Of a stretch of 64,000 bases of DNA, positions 208-28,526 are shown one piece after another. Source of the DNA: Rhizobacter sp. SG703 (GTDB lineage: Bacteria > Pseudomonadota > Gammaproteobacteria > Burkholderiales > Burkholderiaceae_C). Positions within the stretch are counted from its first letter, which is position 1, and the number at the start of each line of letters is the position of its first letter. The notes under the pieces are model-generated. The model searched no databases, was not told where the DNA came from, and saw nothing but the letters and a program-made list of their open reading frames with translations. The DNA lies in contig NZ_JAAZQK010000001.1 of the NCBI RefSeq assembly GCF_012275445.1, positions 305,198 to 369,197 on the forward strand, read 5' to 3'. Made by a program: the position numbers and the translations under genes.

Positions 208-303
208 GGCAAGGCTCGTGGTTCGCGCAGCAGTGCGCCTTGCCTTCCATGACGAGCCGGGGGCGGGTTTGTTCAGCGCCGCCCGCAGGTTCTGGCGGGC
301 CGG

Positions 304-375
304 GCGCCGGGCCGTCCCAAGCCGGCCCGCATCCCCTCGGGGGATCGACCGGTGTACCCACCGGGCGAGGGGTCG
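304..375 (+). repeat. Structured intergenic repeat, type B copy 1
   Basis: About 72 bases shared with 11844-11919 (opposite strand) and 21861-21938. It folds as three hairpins: arms CGGGCCG/CGGCCCG around 8 bases, then ATCCCC-TCG-GGGGAT, then CCGGTG-TACC-CACCGG, followed by GAGGGG. Unlike the other two B copies, no ATG follows the GAGGGG. The element abuts the stop codon of the DUF4880 gene, on the opposite strand, between it and mbtH. Confidence 0.85.
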
Positions 376-379
376 GACG

Positions 380-11250: not shown

Positions 11251-11330
11251 GCCCCCAGTCGCTTCGCTCCTGCCCGAGGGGCGCCACCCCTGGGCCCGGC
11301 AGAGCCGGATCCCCGGGGCGTTGCTTGATG
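11251..11330 (-). repeat. Structured intergenic repeat, type A copy 1
   Basis: Eighty bases closely similar to 12372-12451 and 28445-28526, all in the same orientation. On the minus strand it starts about 20 bases after the stop codon of the proline-rich protein gene. It contains CCGGC-TCT-GCCGG, a GC-rich stem, GCCC-CTC-GGGC and the shared AGCGAAGCGACT hairpin followed by a G run. Confidence 0.9.
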
Positions 11331-11349: not shown

Positions 11350-11841
11350 CTAGCGGCCGCGCTGGCGATGCAGCTCTTGCGCGACGGCGCGCGTGACGAT
11401 CTCGCGCAGCGTGGTCGCGAGCTCGTTGCGGGTGTCGCGGATCAACGAATCGGCAATGCGCGCGAGCGCCGGCGTCAGCAACTCGCGCAGCTTGTATTCG
11501 AAGACCAGGTCGAGCTGGCGCTGCACATCGGTCAGCACACGTTGGACGACGGCTTCTTCGCTGAGCGGTGGAGCCACCGGCGCGGCTGCAGGGGCCGCCG
11601 CCGGGACGGCCGCACGGGGCGCCAGCGGTGGCGGGGGCGATTGCGCAGGAGGCAGCGGCGACAACGCCGATGGCGCGGTGGCCGCGAAAGCCGGCGGCGC
11701 GACCGGCACGGGCGCACGCGGCGGTGAAGGTGGCGGTGGCGGTACGGCCTCGGCGGCCGGCGGCGCGCCGCGTGCGCTCGGCACCACCTCGGTCAGCACC
11801 GGCAGGCGGTGCGGCGGCTGCTGGCGCGGGGTGGTGCTCAT
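11350..11841 (-). CDS. Proline-rich protein of unknown function, third gene of pepA-holC operon
   Basis: 163 residues. The N-terminal half (to about 100) is low-complexity proline/alanine sequence with a polyproline run near residue 35. The C-terminal 60 residues (LSEEAVVQRVLTDVQRQLDLVFEYKLREL, then PALARIADSLIRDTRNELATTLREIV) form amphipathic helices that could oligomerise. It has no signal peptide. The layout, a disordered proline arm with a helical tail, recalls scaffold proteins such as PopZ, but no homology is claimed. The ATG at 11841 is preceded by GAGGGG at five bases, supplied by the type B repeat. It lies downstream of holC on the same strand and is presumably co-transcribed with it. 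Confidence 0.75.
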   Translation of the reverse strand: MSTTPRQQPPHRLPVLTEVVPSARGAPPAAEAVPPPPPSPPRAPVPVAPPAFAATAPSALSPLPPAQSPPPPLAPRAAVPAAAPAAAPVAPPLSEEAVVQRVLTDVQRQLDLVFEYKLRELLTPALARIADSLIRDTRNELATTLREIVTRAVAQELHRQRGR

Positions 11842-11843
11842 GA

Positions 11844-11919
11844 CGACCCCTCGCTCGATGAATACATCGATCGATCCCCCGAGGGGATGCGATCCGGCTT
11901 GGGAACGGCCCGGCGCTCG
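11844..11919 (-). repeat. Structured intergenic repeat, type B copy 2, carrying the RBS of the next gene
   Basis: Minus-strand copy of the type B element between holC and the proline-rich gene. Hairpins: ATCCCC-TCG-GGGGAT, then TCGATG-TATT-CATCGA. The second replaces the CCGGTG/CACCGG stem of copy 1 with fully compensated pairs. It ends GAGGGG-TCGTC-ATG, so the element provides the Shine-Dalgarno. The upstream CCCCTCG can also pair with the terminal CGAGGGG. The first hairpin is partly decayed in this copy. Confidence 0.88.
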
Positions 11920-11926
11920 GCTCGCT

Positions 11927-12367
11927 TCATTCGCCCTCCTGCGCCACGTCGTGCCGGACGATCGGGTAGCCGCGGTCGGCGTAGTGCTTCCAGCGCGCGC
12001 GGCCCGACGGGCGGTCGTCGCCGTCGCGCGAAACGAGCTCGATCACGCGGGCGAAGCTCTCGAAACCGTCGGCGGTTTCTTCGCCCAGGTTCAGCAGCAC
12101 GTCACGGTGCGGCGCATCGGCCAGCCGCTCGACCAGCCAGACCGGCGTCGGCGCGAGCCGCGGCGCGATCGGCTGGCCGGCGCGTGCATGCACATGGGGC
12201 ACGAAATCGGTCGGCTCGAACACCCACAGCTGCTTGTCGAGGCGTCCGAGCACCGGCGCGGGGCCTGCGACCACCACGCGTGCACCGCGGCGAGTCGCCT
12301 TGCGCAGCAACCTGCACGCGTACGACAGCCGATCCGGCACGTTGAAGTGGAAGCTGACCTCTGTCAT
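11927..12367 (-). CDS. holC: DNA polymerase III chi subunit
   Basis: A 146-residue HolC protein, which links the clamp loader (through psi) to single-stranded DNA-binding protein at the replication fork. It starts MTEVSFHFNVPDRLSYACRLLRKA, with the typical beta strand then helix. Downstream comes LDKQLWVFEPTDFVPH, which is diagnostic for chi (W-x-F-x-x-x-x-F-I/V-P-H), and then VLLNLG near residue 100. It follows pepA on the same strand, the order conserved in many proteobacteria. The ATG at 12367 is preceded by a run of six G at five bases, supplied by a type A repeat. Because chi affects replication-fork repair, element-controlled translation of this gene would be notable. Confidence 0.93.
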   Translation of the reverse strand: MTEVSFHFNVPDRLSYACRLLRKATRRGARVVVAGPAPVLGRLDKQLWVFEPTDFVPHVHARAGQPIAPRLAPTPVWLVERLADAPHRDVLLNLGEETADGFESFARVIELVSRDGDDRPSGRARWKHYADRGYPIVRHDVAQEGE

Positions 12368-12371
12368 GTGG

Positions 12372-12451
12372 GCCCCCCAGTCGCTTCGCTCCTGCCCCCG
12401 AGGGGCGCCTCCCCTCGGCCCGGCAAAGCCGGATCCTGGGGAGTGGCTTGA
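12372..12451 (-). repeat. Structured intergenic repeat, type A copy 2, carrying the RBS of holC
   Basis: Minus-strand element filling the pepA-holC gap. It starts 29 bases after the pepA stop. Hairpins: CCGGC-TTT-GCCGG, CCGAGGGG/CCCCTCGG around five bases, alternatively GCCCC-TCG-GGGGC, then a stem around AGCGAAGCGACT. It ends GGGGGG-CCCAC-ATG, the same five-base spacing as the type B copies upstream of 11841 and 21940. Confidence 0.9.
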
Positions 12452-12479
12452 AGGAGCAGCGCGGCGCGGGCCAGGAGCA

Positions 12480-13952
12480 TCACTTTGCCTGCGAGAGCAC
12501 GAATTGCGTCAGCAGCGGCACCGGCCGCCCCGTCGCGCCCTTGGCAGCACCCGACTTCCAGGCGGTGCCGGCGATGTCGAGGTGGGCCCAGCGGTATTTC
12601 GCGGTGAAGCGGCGCAGGAACATCGCCGCGGTGATCGCTCCGCCGGCGCGCGGACCGACGTTGCCCATGTCGGCGAAGTTGCTCTTCAGCGCGTCGTCGT
12701 ACTCCTCGTCCAGCGGCATGCGCCAGGCCGGGTCGAGCGCGCTCTGGCCGGCGGCCAGCAGGTCGGCGGCCAGCGCGTCGTCGGCGGTGAACAGGCCCGA
12801 GTTGTGGTGGCCGAGCGCGATCACGCAGGCACCGGTCAGCGTCGCGATGTCGACCACGACCGCCGGCTTGAAGCGCTCGGCGTAGGTCAGCGCATCGCAC
12901 AGGATCAGCCGGCCTTCGGCGTCGGTGTTCAGGATCTCGATCGTCTGGCCCGACATGCTGGTGACGACGTCGCCCGGCTTCACTGCCCGGCCGCTCGGCA
13001 TGTTCTCGCACGACGGGATGATGCCGATCAGGTTCAGCTTCGGCTTCAGTTCGGCCACCGCGCGCAGCGTGCCGAGCACGCTCGCGGCGCCGCCCATGTC
13101 GTACTTCATCTCGTCCATCTCGGCGGCCGGCTTGATCGAGATGCCGCCGGTGTCGAAGGTGATGCCCTTGCCGACCAGCACGATCGGCGCCTGCGTCTTC
13201 GCCGCGCCTTCGTAGCGCGCGACGATGAAGCGCAGCGGCTCGTCGGAGCCCTGGGCGACCGCGAGGAACGAGCCCATGCCGAGCTTCTCGACCGCCTTGC
13301 GGTCCAGCACCTCGACCTTCAGGCCGTGGTCCTTCGCAAGCTTCTTCGCCTGCTCGGCCAGGAAGGTGGGCGTGCAGTGGTTGCCCGGCCGGTTGGCGCA
13401 TTCGCGCGCCAGCTCGACGCCGGCACCGATCGCCTCGCCGACCGCCAGGCCCGACTGCACCGCCTTGGCCTGCGCCTTGTCGCACACCAGCGTGAGCTTG
13501 GCGATGGCCGATGCGGCCGGTGCGCTGGGCTTGGTGTGGCGGTACAGGTAGGTGGCGTCGCCGGCCGCGGCGACCAGCGCCTGCGCATGCGCGGCGCCGA
13601 GGTCGCCGGCCGAAGCCAGCGCGACGGCCACGTGCTTCGCGCCGCCGCCCTTCAGCTGGGCCAGCCCGTTCGCGACCGCGGTCTTGAAGGCCTTCGCGGT
13701 GCCGGAGGCGGCTGCGGCCACCACCACGCGCGGCGCCTTCACGCCGGCCACGCGGTGCAGGTACAGCGCGCGCCCGGCCTTCAGTGCGAAGTCGCCATGG
13801 GCGATCGCCTCGTTGATCGGGGCCGCGAGCTTCGCGTCGAGCGAGGCATCGACGGTGTTGCCGCCGGCGGAGGCGTCGACGATGACGAGCAGTGCGTCGG
13901 CCTGCAGGGCAGCCAGGCTGCCGGAAGAAGAAACCTGATGCTTGAAGTCCAT
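12480..13952 (-). CDS. pepA: Leucyl aminopeptidase (cytosol aminopeptidase, M17)
   Basis: A 490-residue M17 aminopeptidase removing N-terminal residues from peptides in the cytoplasm with two metal ions; in E. coli PepA also binds DNA in Xer recombination. The family signature NTDAEGRL is present, along with [16 protein letters not shown] (metal-binding Lys and Asp) and the MKYDMGGAA region. The start at 13952 (MDFKHQVSS) is chosen by homology to the short N-terminus; the longer frame would run into the divergent lptF leader. It is the first gene of pepA-[repeat A]-holC-[repeat B]-proline-rich gene, and is divergent from lptF with only 26 bases between them. Confidence 0.95.
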
Positions 13953-21837: not shown

Positions 21838-21860
21838 CGCGTGCCCGCGAGACCGCGGGC

Positions 21861-21938
21861 CGAGCGCCGGGCCGCTCCCAAGCCGGCCCGCGCTCCCCTC
21901 GGGGGAGTGGCCGGCGTACTCGCCGGTCGAGGGGCTGT
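21861..21938 (+). repeat. Structured intergenic repeat, type B copy 3, carrying the RBS of the next gene
   Basis: Fills the gap between the enoyl-CoA hydratase and histidine phosphatase genes. Hairpins: CGGGCCG/CGGCCCG around nine bases, CTCCCC-TCG-GGGGAG (the A-T closing pair of the other copies is changed to C-G), and CCGGCG-TACT-CGCCGG. It ends GAGGGG-CTGTC-ATG. The upstream CCCCTCG is complementary to the terminal CGAGGGG. Confidence 0.9.
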
Positions 21939-21939
21939 C

Positions 21940-22623
21940 ATGAGGCGACGCATCTACCTGATGCGGCATGGGTCGGTCGACTACTTTCGAGAAGACGGCA
22001 GCGCGGTGCCGCCGGACACGGTGCCGCTGAATGCCGTCGGCCGCGAGCAGGCCGATGCAGCGGGCCGGTTGTTCGCGCAATGCGGCGTGCAATTCGACAG
22101 CGTGCTCGTCAGCGGATTGCCGCGCACGGTCGAGACCGCGACGCGCGTGCTGGCCGCGGGCGCGCAGCCGGCCTTGCAACTGCTGCACGAGCACGCGCTC
22201 GAAGAGATCCGCCCAGGCCGCCTGGCCGACATCCCGAAGCACGAGATCGAGGCCGCCTTCCTCGGCGCGTTCCGCATCGGCCCGGACGTGCAATCGCAGC
22301 GCTTCCTCGGGGGCGAATCGGTCGGCGAGCTGCTCGACCGCGTGCTGCCGGCCTTCGACGCGCTGCTCGCGCGCGACGACTGGCAATGCCTGCTGATGGT
22401 GATGCACGGCGGCGTGAACCGCGCGTTGCTGTCGCGCGTGCTGGCCGGCGAGCGCGCCTTCTTCGGCCGGCTCGAACAGGCGCCGGCCTGCATCAACGTG
22501 ATCGACGTCGGCACGAACGACCAGATCGTGCGCGCCGTCAACCTCGCGCCCACGCAATGGCTGCACGAGCGCGAGACGATGACGACGATGGAGAAGCTGC
22601 TGGCGCAGTACATGCGCCCATAG
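21940..22623 (+). CDS. Histidine phosphatase superfamily protein
   Basis: A 227-residue phosphoglycerate-mutase-like phosphatase. The N-terminal RIYLMRHGSVDYF has the catalytic RHG (His9 forms the phospho-intermediate). LVSGLPRTVETA contains the phosphate-binding arginine, EIRPGRL the acid and VMHGGVNRALL the second histidine. The substrate is unknown. It follows an enoyl-CoA hydratase and is 2 kb from an APH-type kinase plus ACAD11-like dehydrogenase, so a phosphorylated acyl or sugar intermediate is conceivable. Start 21940 is fixed by GAGGGG at five bases, provided by the repeat; an earlier frame would read through the repeat. Confidence 0.88.
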   Translation: MRRRIYLMRHGSVDYFREDGSAVPPDTVPLNAVGREQADAAGRLFAQCGVQFDSVLVSGLPRTVETATRVLAAGAQPALQLLHEHALEEIRPGRLADIPKHEIEAAFLGAFRIGPDVQSQRFLGGESVGELLDRVLPAFDALLARDDWQCLLMVMHGGVNRALLSRVLAGERAFFGRLEQAPACINVIDVGTNDQIVRAVNLAPTQWLHERETMTTMEKLLAQYMRP

Positions 22624-28436: not shown

Positions 28437-28444
28437 AGCAAACG

Positions 28445-28526
28445 GCCCCCCAGTCGCTTCGCTCCTGCCCCCAAGGGGCGCCACCCCAGGGGCCCGGCAA
28501 AGCCGGTTCCCCGGGGCGTTGCTTGA
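28445..28526 (-). repeat. Structured intergenic repeat, type A copy 3
   Basis: About 82 bases nearly identical to 11251-11330 and 12372-12451. On the minus strand it begins 14 bases after the stop of the substrate-binding protein gene, as the other A copies do after their genes. On the other side is the stop of the GST gene. It contains CCGGC-TTT-GCCGG and the AGCGAAGCGACT segment followed by six G, but no start codon follows. Confidence 0.9.

What the first reader, a model, noticed from the sequence alone, without database searches (positions are those of the whole stretch)
11844..11919. Type B element: covarying hairpins ending in a Shine-Dalgarno that can be sequestered
Seen: three type B copies (304-375, 11844-11919, 21861-21938) keep the same fold while their sequence changes in a compensated way. 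The third hairpin is CCGGTG-TACC-CACCGG, TCGATG-TATT-CATCGA and CCGGCG-TACT-CGCCGG. The second hairpin changes its closing pair from A-T to C-G. Each copy ends GAGGGG, and in two copies an ATG follows exactly five bases later. The CCCCTCG in hairpin two is complementary to the terminal CGAGGGG, so pairing there would bury the ribosome-binding site. Inference: a mobile, RNA-level translation switch.
Basis: partly seen in the sequence, partly recalled or inferred. Interest (0 to 1): 0.8.

Follow-up and report, generated by a model that had tools for sequence, protein, structure and literature searches.

The report
Mobile hairpin element forming coupled micro-ORFs
A short hairpin repeat scattered through a Rhizobacter genome inserts where one operon gene stops and the next starts, and in most testable cases it keeps a tiny in-phase reading frame that ribosomes could pass through, so it looks like a translation-friendly mobile element and not like a riboswitch.

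Summary
In detail: three ~85-nt type B copies with compensated hairpins. B is a dispersed family: 103 matches in this Rhizobacter genome (150 of 14,903 candidates scored); 26 of 100 genomes searched, own included, all in one family. It is recently mobile: 12 of 14 aligned copies are missing from at least one close relative. The proposed switch is not supported: the Shine-Dalgarno-burying helix does not covary and has near-zero predicted probability in the window copies. Instead, sense copies inside operons often sit at stop/start overlaps (ATGA), with ATGA on both sides, and read as a ~30-codon micro-ORF that starts on the upstream stop and ends on the downstream start. Of 36 testable copies 34 are in phase (permutation mean 17.0, 0 of 20,000), 33 of 35 with orthologous sites merged; convergent copies 3 of 11. 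The window copy encodes MKRAERRAVPKPDRIPSGDRSMYSSSEGSS*. Residues show no selection: the frame is kept, not the peptide. Against: B1 faces a stop, B3 lacks such an ORF. Best reading: a REP/MITE-like non-autonomous element tolerated at coupled junctions mainly in translatable form. Translation and the mobilising enzyme are untested.

The parts
11841..11925 (-). Type B element, copy 2; its last base is the A of the downstream ATG
   Evidence: 104.2 bits
11838..11930 (-). Predicted micro-ORF made by the insertion: its ATG overlaps the TGA stop of holC, its TGA overlaps the ATG of the next gene; 30 aa
11889..11925 (-). Hairpin 1 (outer stem GCGAGCCG/CGGATCGC, one mismatch in this copy)
11874..11888 (-). 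Hairpin 2, ATCCCC-TCG-GGGGAT
11852..11873 (-). Hairpin 3, conserved GTAY loop, strongest covariation
11847..11852 (-). GAGGGG, Shine-Dalgarno-like, five bases before the ATG at 11841
11935..11940 (-). AGGAGG that stands before the ATGA also in the relative without the element; now precedes the micro-ORF
   Evidence: (G008)
11927..12367 (-). holC (DNA polymerase III chi), upstream gene
   Evidence: PF04364 5.6e-35
11350..11841 (-). Downstream gene, 163 aa, no Pfam match at E<=0.01
295..378 (+). Type B copy 1; its end faces the stop of a gene on the opposite strand; no start codon there
21855..21940 (+). Type B copy 3 (86-nt form) before the histidine phosphatase start at 21940; no in-phase start overlapping the upstream stop
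12364..12480 (-). Type A repeat at the pepA-holC junction, also an open in-phase ORF (38 aa) from TGATG to ACATGA; a different family

Best explanation
Type B is a non-autonomous, REP/MITE-like mobile element of mostly 84-86 nt with three hairpins, found here only within the family of Rhizobacter. One favoured site is the ATGA (or TGATG) overlap between two co-directional operon genes. Shown: after such an insertion an ATGA lies on both sides. The left one closes the upstream gene and can open a micro-ORF through the element; the right one closes that micro-ORF and opens the downstream gene; the element also brings GAGGGG five bases before that start. Shown: the phase of this chain is kept although linker and element lengths both vary. 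Inferred: ribosomes ending the upstream gene reinitiate on the micro-ORF, unfold the hairpins and terminate next to the downstream start, so translational coupling survives; insertions that break the phase are removed by selection. The peptide appears to have no role of its own. Copies between convergent genes are a second class without such a frame, often giving the opposite gene its stop codon. The enzyme that moves the element is unknown.
For: Location: of 94 own copies (at least 46 bits) and 89 from other genomes only 3 and 3 lie between divergent genes. Phase: 18 own copies have both overlaps, 16 in phase and all 16 open; relatives 18, 18 in phase, 17 open. Together 34 of 36; shuffling linkers against element lengths gives a mean of 17.0, 0 of 20,000 reach 34; the count stays 34 if, in the 3 copies with two candidate starts, only the first is used. 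Merging copies before the same gene: 33 of 35, mean 17.1, 0 of 20,000. Compensation is visible: after ATGA, 0 nt with an 86-nt element, 1 with 85, 2 with 84, 6 with 95. Control: convergent copies 3 of 11 in phase. In the own genome the frame-changing 84-nt form is 3 of 23 at junction starts but 34 of 46 elsewhere (84 vs 85/86 nt, p 1.8e-6). Empty sites with a single ATGA overlap: copy 2, C4:44578, C8:299648, C16:113872, C16:115067. Parallel cases: at C16:113872, where G002 is empty, G008 carries an unrelated repeat with ATGA on both sides and an open in-phase 42-aa ORF; the window's type A copy at pepA-holC is likewise open and in phase. Fused variants: the element gives upstream proteins a tail ending TCA-TGA on the next start (3 own, 2 relatives flagged).
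Against: No measurement of translation. No amino-acid-level selection: synonymous/nonsynonymous changes 71/241 in 37 coupled copies, 166/548 in 87 others (p 0.94), and the frame is free of stops in nearly all copies of both classes (47 of 50, 128 of 133). Out-of-phase exceptions C10:57904 and C1:550760. Nine more junction-start copies lack a start overlapping the upstream stop (4 own, 5 relatives). Sense-operonic copies without a start at the junction, where no chain is needed, are in phase in 8 of 14, above one third, so part of the phase bias may be inherited. At C8:293675 the empty relative has an ATGA start that does not overlap the upstream stop. Window copy 3 has no in-phase start on the upstream stop; copy 1 is not at a start. 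The 84-nt contrast is not seen in relatives (5 of 29 vs 13 of 54, p 0.58), where copies were picked by best model score. Gene strands come from a home-made codon score, which misplaced copy 2 itself (so it is not among the 36). A mechanism that always inserts a fixed length with a 4-bp duplication would give the same phase at birth, though not the compensation.
Confidence: 0.72

Rival explanations
1. Ordinary dispersed palindromic repeat. The insertion mechanism duplicates ATGA and adds a fixed length, so the phase is a by-product and the micro-ORF is never used.
For: The commonest arrangement is 85 nt with 1 nt after ATGA (13 of 36); no peptide selection; the GC-rich element is open in nearly all copies of both classes; 8 of 14 sense copies without a junction start are also in phase.
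Against: Phase is kept with 2 to 33 nt from start codon to element and lengths 84-95, far above permutation; convergent copies are not in phase (3 of 11); two unrelated repeats show the same arrangement at coupled junctions.
Confidence: 0.2
2. RNA translation switch: CCCCTCG pairs with the terminal CGAGGGG and buries the ribosome-binding site, relieved by a signal.
For: The two stretches are complementary in nearly all copies (97.3% of cells); the GAGGGG is predicted mostly paired with something (mean 0.27 unpaired in 46 sense-start copies).
Against: No covariation and 6 of 32 copies break the T-A pair; predicted probability near zero in the window copies, above 0.3 in only 3 of 46 and 2 of 88; hairpin 2 claims the same bases and is supported; no Rfam family matches (for 11700-12600).
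Confidence: 0.04
3. The encoded peptide or C-terminal tail is itself functional (tag, leader peptide).
For: A recognisable consensus, roughly (M)[29 protein letters not shown], recurs in several genera.
Against: Third codon positions are the least variable and the ratio of change types equals that of other copies; the orthologous copy 2 in G002 differs at several residues yet still matches the model (89.2 bits).
Confidence: 0.04

Closest known systems
Rickettsia palindromic elements (RPE)
   Same: Short dispersed palindromes inserted so that they are read in frame within host genes (review PMC10969869, passages read)
   Different: RPEs insert inside coding genes; B sits between operon genes and adds a whole start-to-stop unit with both overlaps kept. 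No sequence comparison with RPEs was made
ORF-carrying RU/ERIC repeats of enterobacteria (PMC2759123, abstract read)
   Same: Small mobile repeats with open frames, found within genes
   Different: The abstract describes gene fusions, not an ATGA-to-ATGA chain
Chunjie MITE of Geobacter (Chen 2008; title seen in two reference lists, one review passage; paper not held)
   Same: A MITE in an operon, by its title without disturbing the operon structure
   Different: 178-235 bp with terminal inverted repeats; the review passage says it disrupts one phosphate uptake operon; whether translation was considered was not seen
MITEs QMITE1/2 of Coxiella (PMC5896051, passages read)
   Same: Some copies supply stop codons or short C-terminal tails to neighbouring genes
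   Different: 150-400 bp, direct repeats, no micro-ORF chain between operon genes in the passages seen
GTAG/CGTC-tagged REPs (PMC3733652, abstract and passages read)
   Same: Dispersed hairpins, mostly downstream of genes, some read in genes; no transposase beside the CGTC class
   Different: 20-40 bp single hairpins with a tag at one end; B has three hairpins over about 85 nt
Termination-reinitiation at ATGA/TGATG overlaps (PMC6728339, abstract read)
   Same: The coupling mechanism invoked here
   Different: Concerns native gene pairs, not mobile elements

Membership tests
REP (GTAG or CGTC type) | 20-40 bp single palindrome with an unpaired GTAG or CGTC/TGTC tag at one end | tested here: not met
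   84-86 nt, three hairpins; the 3' end is TCGTCA (22), CTGTCA (19), TTGTCA (15) and others of 123 distinct copies, but lies beyond an unpaired CGAGGGG
REP mobilised by RAYT | A Y1 transposase gene flanked by the repeats | tested here: not met
   One Y1_Tnp match in the genome; no B in its 3.3-kb locus at E<=1
MITE | Terminal inverted repeats | tested here: not met
   2 of the first 10 and 5 of the first 20 bases match between the ends; best 12-mer with offsets 7 of 12 (consensus)
MITE | Target-site duplication | tested here: inconclusive
   ATGA on both sides at coupled sites with one ATGA in the empty site, but no clear duplication at convergent sites
Mobile element (any) | Presence/absence at orthologous sites | tested here: met
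   12 of 14 aligned copies absent from G008, G002 or both
RPE-type protein-coding palindrome | Kept in frame with host translation | tested here: met
   34 of 36 in phase, at junctions and not inside genes
RPE-type protein-coding palindrome | Insertion inside a coding gene | tested here: not met
   Sense copies lie between genes; the nearest thing is a C-terminal tail (3 own, 2 relatives)
Riboswitch / known structured RNA | Match to an Rfam family | tested here: not met
   0 matches in the whole window at gathering scores; one chance-level match, outside B, in 11700-12600 at E<=5
SD-sequestering switch | Conserved alternative pairing of the SD | tested here: not met

The most novel reading that the evidence does not exclude
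A class of mobile elements adapted to operon junctions: they carry a portable, phase-correct reading frame and a ribosome-binding site, so that inserting into a stop/start overlap turns a two-gene coupled unit into a three-gene coupled unit. Unrelated repeats converge on the same solution, which makes translation-compatible insertion a general filter that shapes which repeats can live inside operons.
Probability: 0.4. Interest if true: 0.75.

Novelty: new variant of a known kind. Interest (0 to 1): 0.6.

Why it matters
Repeats of this kind are usually treated as extragenic. If these copies are translated, this family carries many unannotated micro-ORFs that exist only to let ribosomes pass a mobile element, and their phase becomes a genome-scale readout of how much translational coupling matters to operons. 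It also shows how covarying, SD-bearing repeats before start codons can be mistaken for riboswitches.

Tried and rejected
SD-sequestration switch: tested by covariation and by partition-function folding, not supported. Known RNA family: none. RAYT as partner: one Y1 gene, no B in its locus. A transposase between close pairs of B: six long ORFs from five inter-element intervals gave Pfam matches to SLAC1, DJ-1/PfpI plus AraC-type HTH (two opposite-strand ORFs of one interval), NadA, a branched-chain transporter permease and arginyl-tRNA synthetase; one ORF had none; no transposase. Spread on plasmids or phages: no match for the DNA or, on plasmids, for the peptide (phages not tried with the peptide). 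Peptide function: no sign. Joint A/B model: dropped because A is a distinct family. Antisense operonic copies: some also make an open frame that ends on the downstream start (2 of 16 own, 7 of 24 from relatives, counted by eye); no phase statistic was run, so no claim is made. Literature: nine searches, of which I saw the listings; no listed title or abstract start described this element or a mobile micro-ORF at ATGA overlaps. Only open-licence PubMed Central is held.

Rows dropped: the phase test needs sense-operonic placement by codon score, a start at the junction in the coding frame, an upstream stop and both overlaps. From 183 copies 55 had a junction start; 7 of these had no stop before the element or were fused, 9 had no start overlapping the upstream stop, 3 had no stop overlapping the downstream start; 36 remain. 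The relative copies (89 matches in 88 loci) were chosen mostly from the best model scores listed, at most 45 candidates being scored per genome. One search used 124 of 183 copies (84 or 85 nt, over 75% identity), 123 distinct. Of 103 own matches the 9 below 46 bits were left out. For type A, 30 of 44 matches were read.

Full report
WHAT IS THERE. The three B copies are real and as described. They belong to a family: BLAST with copy 3 scored 40 matches in the own genome (196 first-look candidates, 40 scored); a covariance model built from 32 copies found 103 at E<=0.01 (150 of 14,903 candidates scored). The window is G000:C1:305198-369197 of a 6.5-Mb genome. The nearest named record is Rhizobacter sp. 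Root1238 (pepA 99% identical); G002 has a contig of the same length (377,372) and is probably that genome. NCBI places Rhizobacter in Sphaerotilaceae. In 100 genomes including the own one, the model found matches in 26 at E<=1e-4 with stricter filters: 10 of 11 of the genus, 16 of 49 others of the family, 0 of 40 outside it. One same-genus genome (G006) gave none and another (G010) three (at most 45 candidates scored per genome).

ANATOMY. 5' GCGGGCCG-AGCGCCGGGCCGC(T)CCCAAGC-CGGCCCGC (hairpin 1), ATCCCC-TCG-GGGGAT (hairpin 2), CGn-CCGACG-GTAY loop-CGTCGG-nCG (hairpin 3), then CGAGGGG, two variable bases and mostly GTCA. Covariation is well above shuffles. Over 123 distinct copies G-T mismatches outnumber A-C 52 to 11 in the sense orientation (p 2e-7 on cells that are not independent; 121 other mismatches, many at one position of hairpin 3), so the strand drawn here is probably the one that folds, as RNA or as single-stranded DNA. 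Strand-biased mutation could give the same.

MOBILITY. Against G008 (the syntenic pieces mostly 89-96% identical, one 83%) and G002 (mostly 94-98%, one 89%), 14 copies were aligned; 12 are missing in one or both: C10:283149, C4:44578, C4:57512, C8:293675, C8:299648, C5:113622, C5:122231, C1:305492 (window copy 1), C1:317038 (window copy 2), C10:267830, C16:113872, C16:115067. Of the other two, C10:265544 was aligned only with G002, which has it; the match coordinates leave no room for it in G008. C10:287693 is filled in G002 and unclear in G008. For C4:57512 and C5:113622 the junctions are too changed to read exactly.

PLACEMENT. By codon score, own copies lie between convergent genes (40 of 94), inside operons in sense (35) or antisense (16), and rarely between divergent genes (3); copies from relatives 17, 45, 24 and 3 of 89. 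In the sense class the start codon begins on the element's last base in the coding frame in 26 of 35 and 29 of 45. In the convergent class the element's terminal TCA is in frame as the stop of the opposite gene in 17 of 40 own and 8 of 17 relative copies.

THE MICRO-ORF. At copy 2 the relative without the element (G008) reads GGCGA-ATGA-GCACC: holC stops and the next gene starts in one ATGA. With the element it reads GGCGA-ATGA-A-[B]-GTC-ATGA-GCACC. The first ATG opens a 30-codon frame through the element, and its TGA overlaps the downstream ATG. The AGGAGG that stood before the gene now precedes the micro-ORF and the element's GAGGGG precedes the gene. The same arrangement was read at C4:44578 and C8:299648 and at C16:113872 and C16:115067; at C8:293675 the empty relative has an ATGA start that does not overlap the upstream stop. 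Across copies the phase is kept in 34 of 36, against 17.0 expected when linker and element lengths are shuffled (unchanged if only the first of two candidate starts is used), and in 33 of 35 sites with different downstream genes. The start codon lies 2 to 33 nt before the element. Convergent copies with a comparable left end are in phase in 3 of 11; sense copies without a start at the junction in 8 of 14. The last figure is above one third on a small sample and leaves room for inherited phase. Copy 2 is not in the 36 because the codon score misread its proline-rich downstream gene; it would be one more in phase. Copy 3 is not a case: the upstream gene stops 17 nt before the element and no ATG, GTG or TTG opens the frame that ends on its ATGA.

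CONVERGENT SUPPORT. At C16:113872 the genome G008 has not B but another repeat (containing TTCGACARGCTCAG, a motif found in 14 of 329 loci) between two ATGA, open and in phase: MSGRPQFPFALSLSKGLRASNQGFDKLSPNEELRGLAQEDGP*. In the window, the type A repeat at pepA-holC is likewise open from TGATG to ACATGA, although the other A copies read show no such placement (30 read). These are two cases, not a statistic.

WHAT IS NOT SELECTED. Synonymous and nonsynonymous changes are in the same ratio in coupled and other copies. So the frame, not the peptide, is kept. This fits selection for ribosome passage or coupling, and argues against a functional peptide.

THE SWITCH. The SD-burying helix is complementary by composition but shows no covariation, and one of its pairs is broken in 6 of 32 copies. 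Its predicted probability is about zero in the window copies and above 0.3 in 3 of 46 sense-start and 2 of 88 other copies.

COMPARISON. It works like an RPE in being translation-compatible and like REP/MITE elements in being short, structured and non-autonomous, but it fails defining features of each: no tagged single hairpin, no RAYT partner found, no terminal inverted repeats, and placement between genes and not inside them. Coupling at ATGA overlaps is established for native gene pairs (PMC6728339, abstract). I therefore file it as a new variant of a known kind.

STATUS OF STEPS. Shown: family, fold covariation, mobility, ATGA placement, phase. Inferred: translation, reinitiation, selection on phase. 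Unknown: the enzyme, the exact ends, and whether the ATGA pair is a target duplication or is kept by selection.

Noticed in passing
window 12364-12480, 11252-11317, 28444-28515: Type A repeat family (44 matches in the own genome, 40 of 181 candidates scored), unrelated in placement to B; the pepA-holC copy forms an open in-phase 38-codon ORF between the two genes and the match coordinates leave no room for it in G002 and G008.
   Followed up: partly
L327 from 4650: A different dispersed repeat (TTCGACARGCTCAG motif) inserted in G008 at the same ATGA junction where the window genome carries B.
   Followed up: partly
L233 357-847 and beyond: In G002, at the position of window copy 1 (between the pieces matching window 280 and 378), an array with 20 matches to the TTCGACARGCTCAG motif, those listed in alternating orientation.
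   Followed up: no
C9:223497, C4:239500, C8:270450, C4:137933, C10:265633, C10:267830: Long B variants of 111-113 nt with an extra hairpin inside the loop of hairpin 1, such as CCACGAAG...CTTCGTGG.
   Followed up: no
C8:170670, C3:372482, C8:123512, C10:257042: Four B copies share the left flank (t/c)aggttc.atgt..ggcgtcaa; two of them abut a GTAGCCCGG... REP-like hairpin on the right, suggesting a composite element.
   Followed up: no
C4:110649-110942: The only Y1 transposase match found in the genome, with no B in its 3.3-kb locus.
   Followed up: partly
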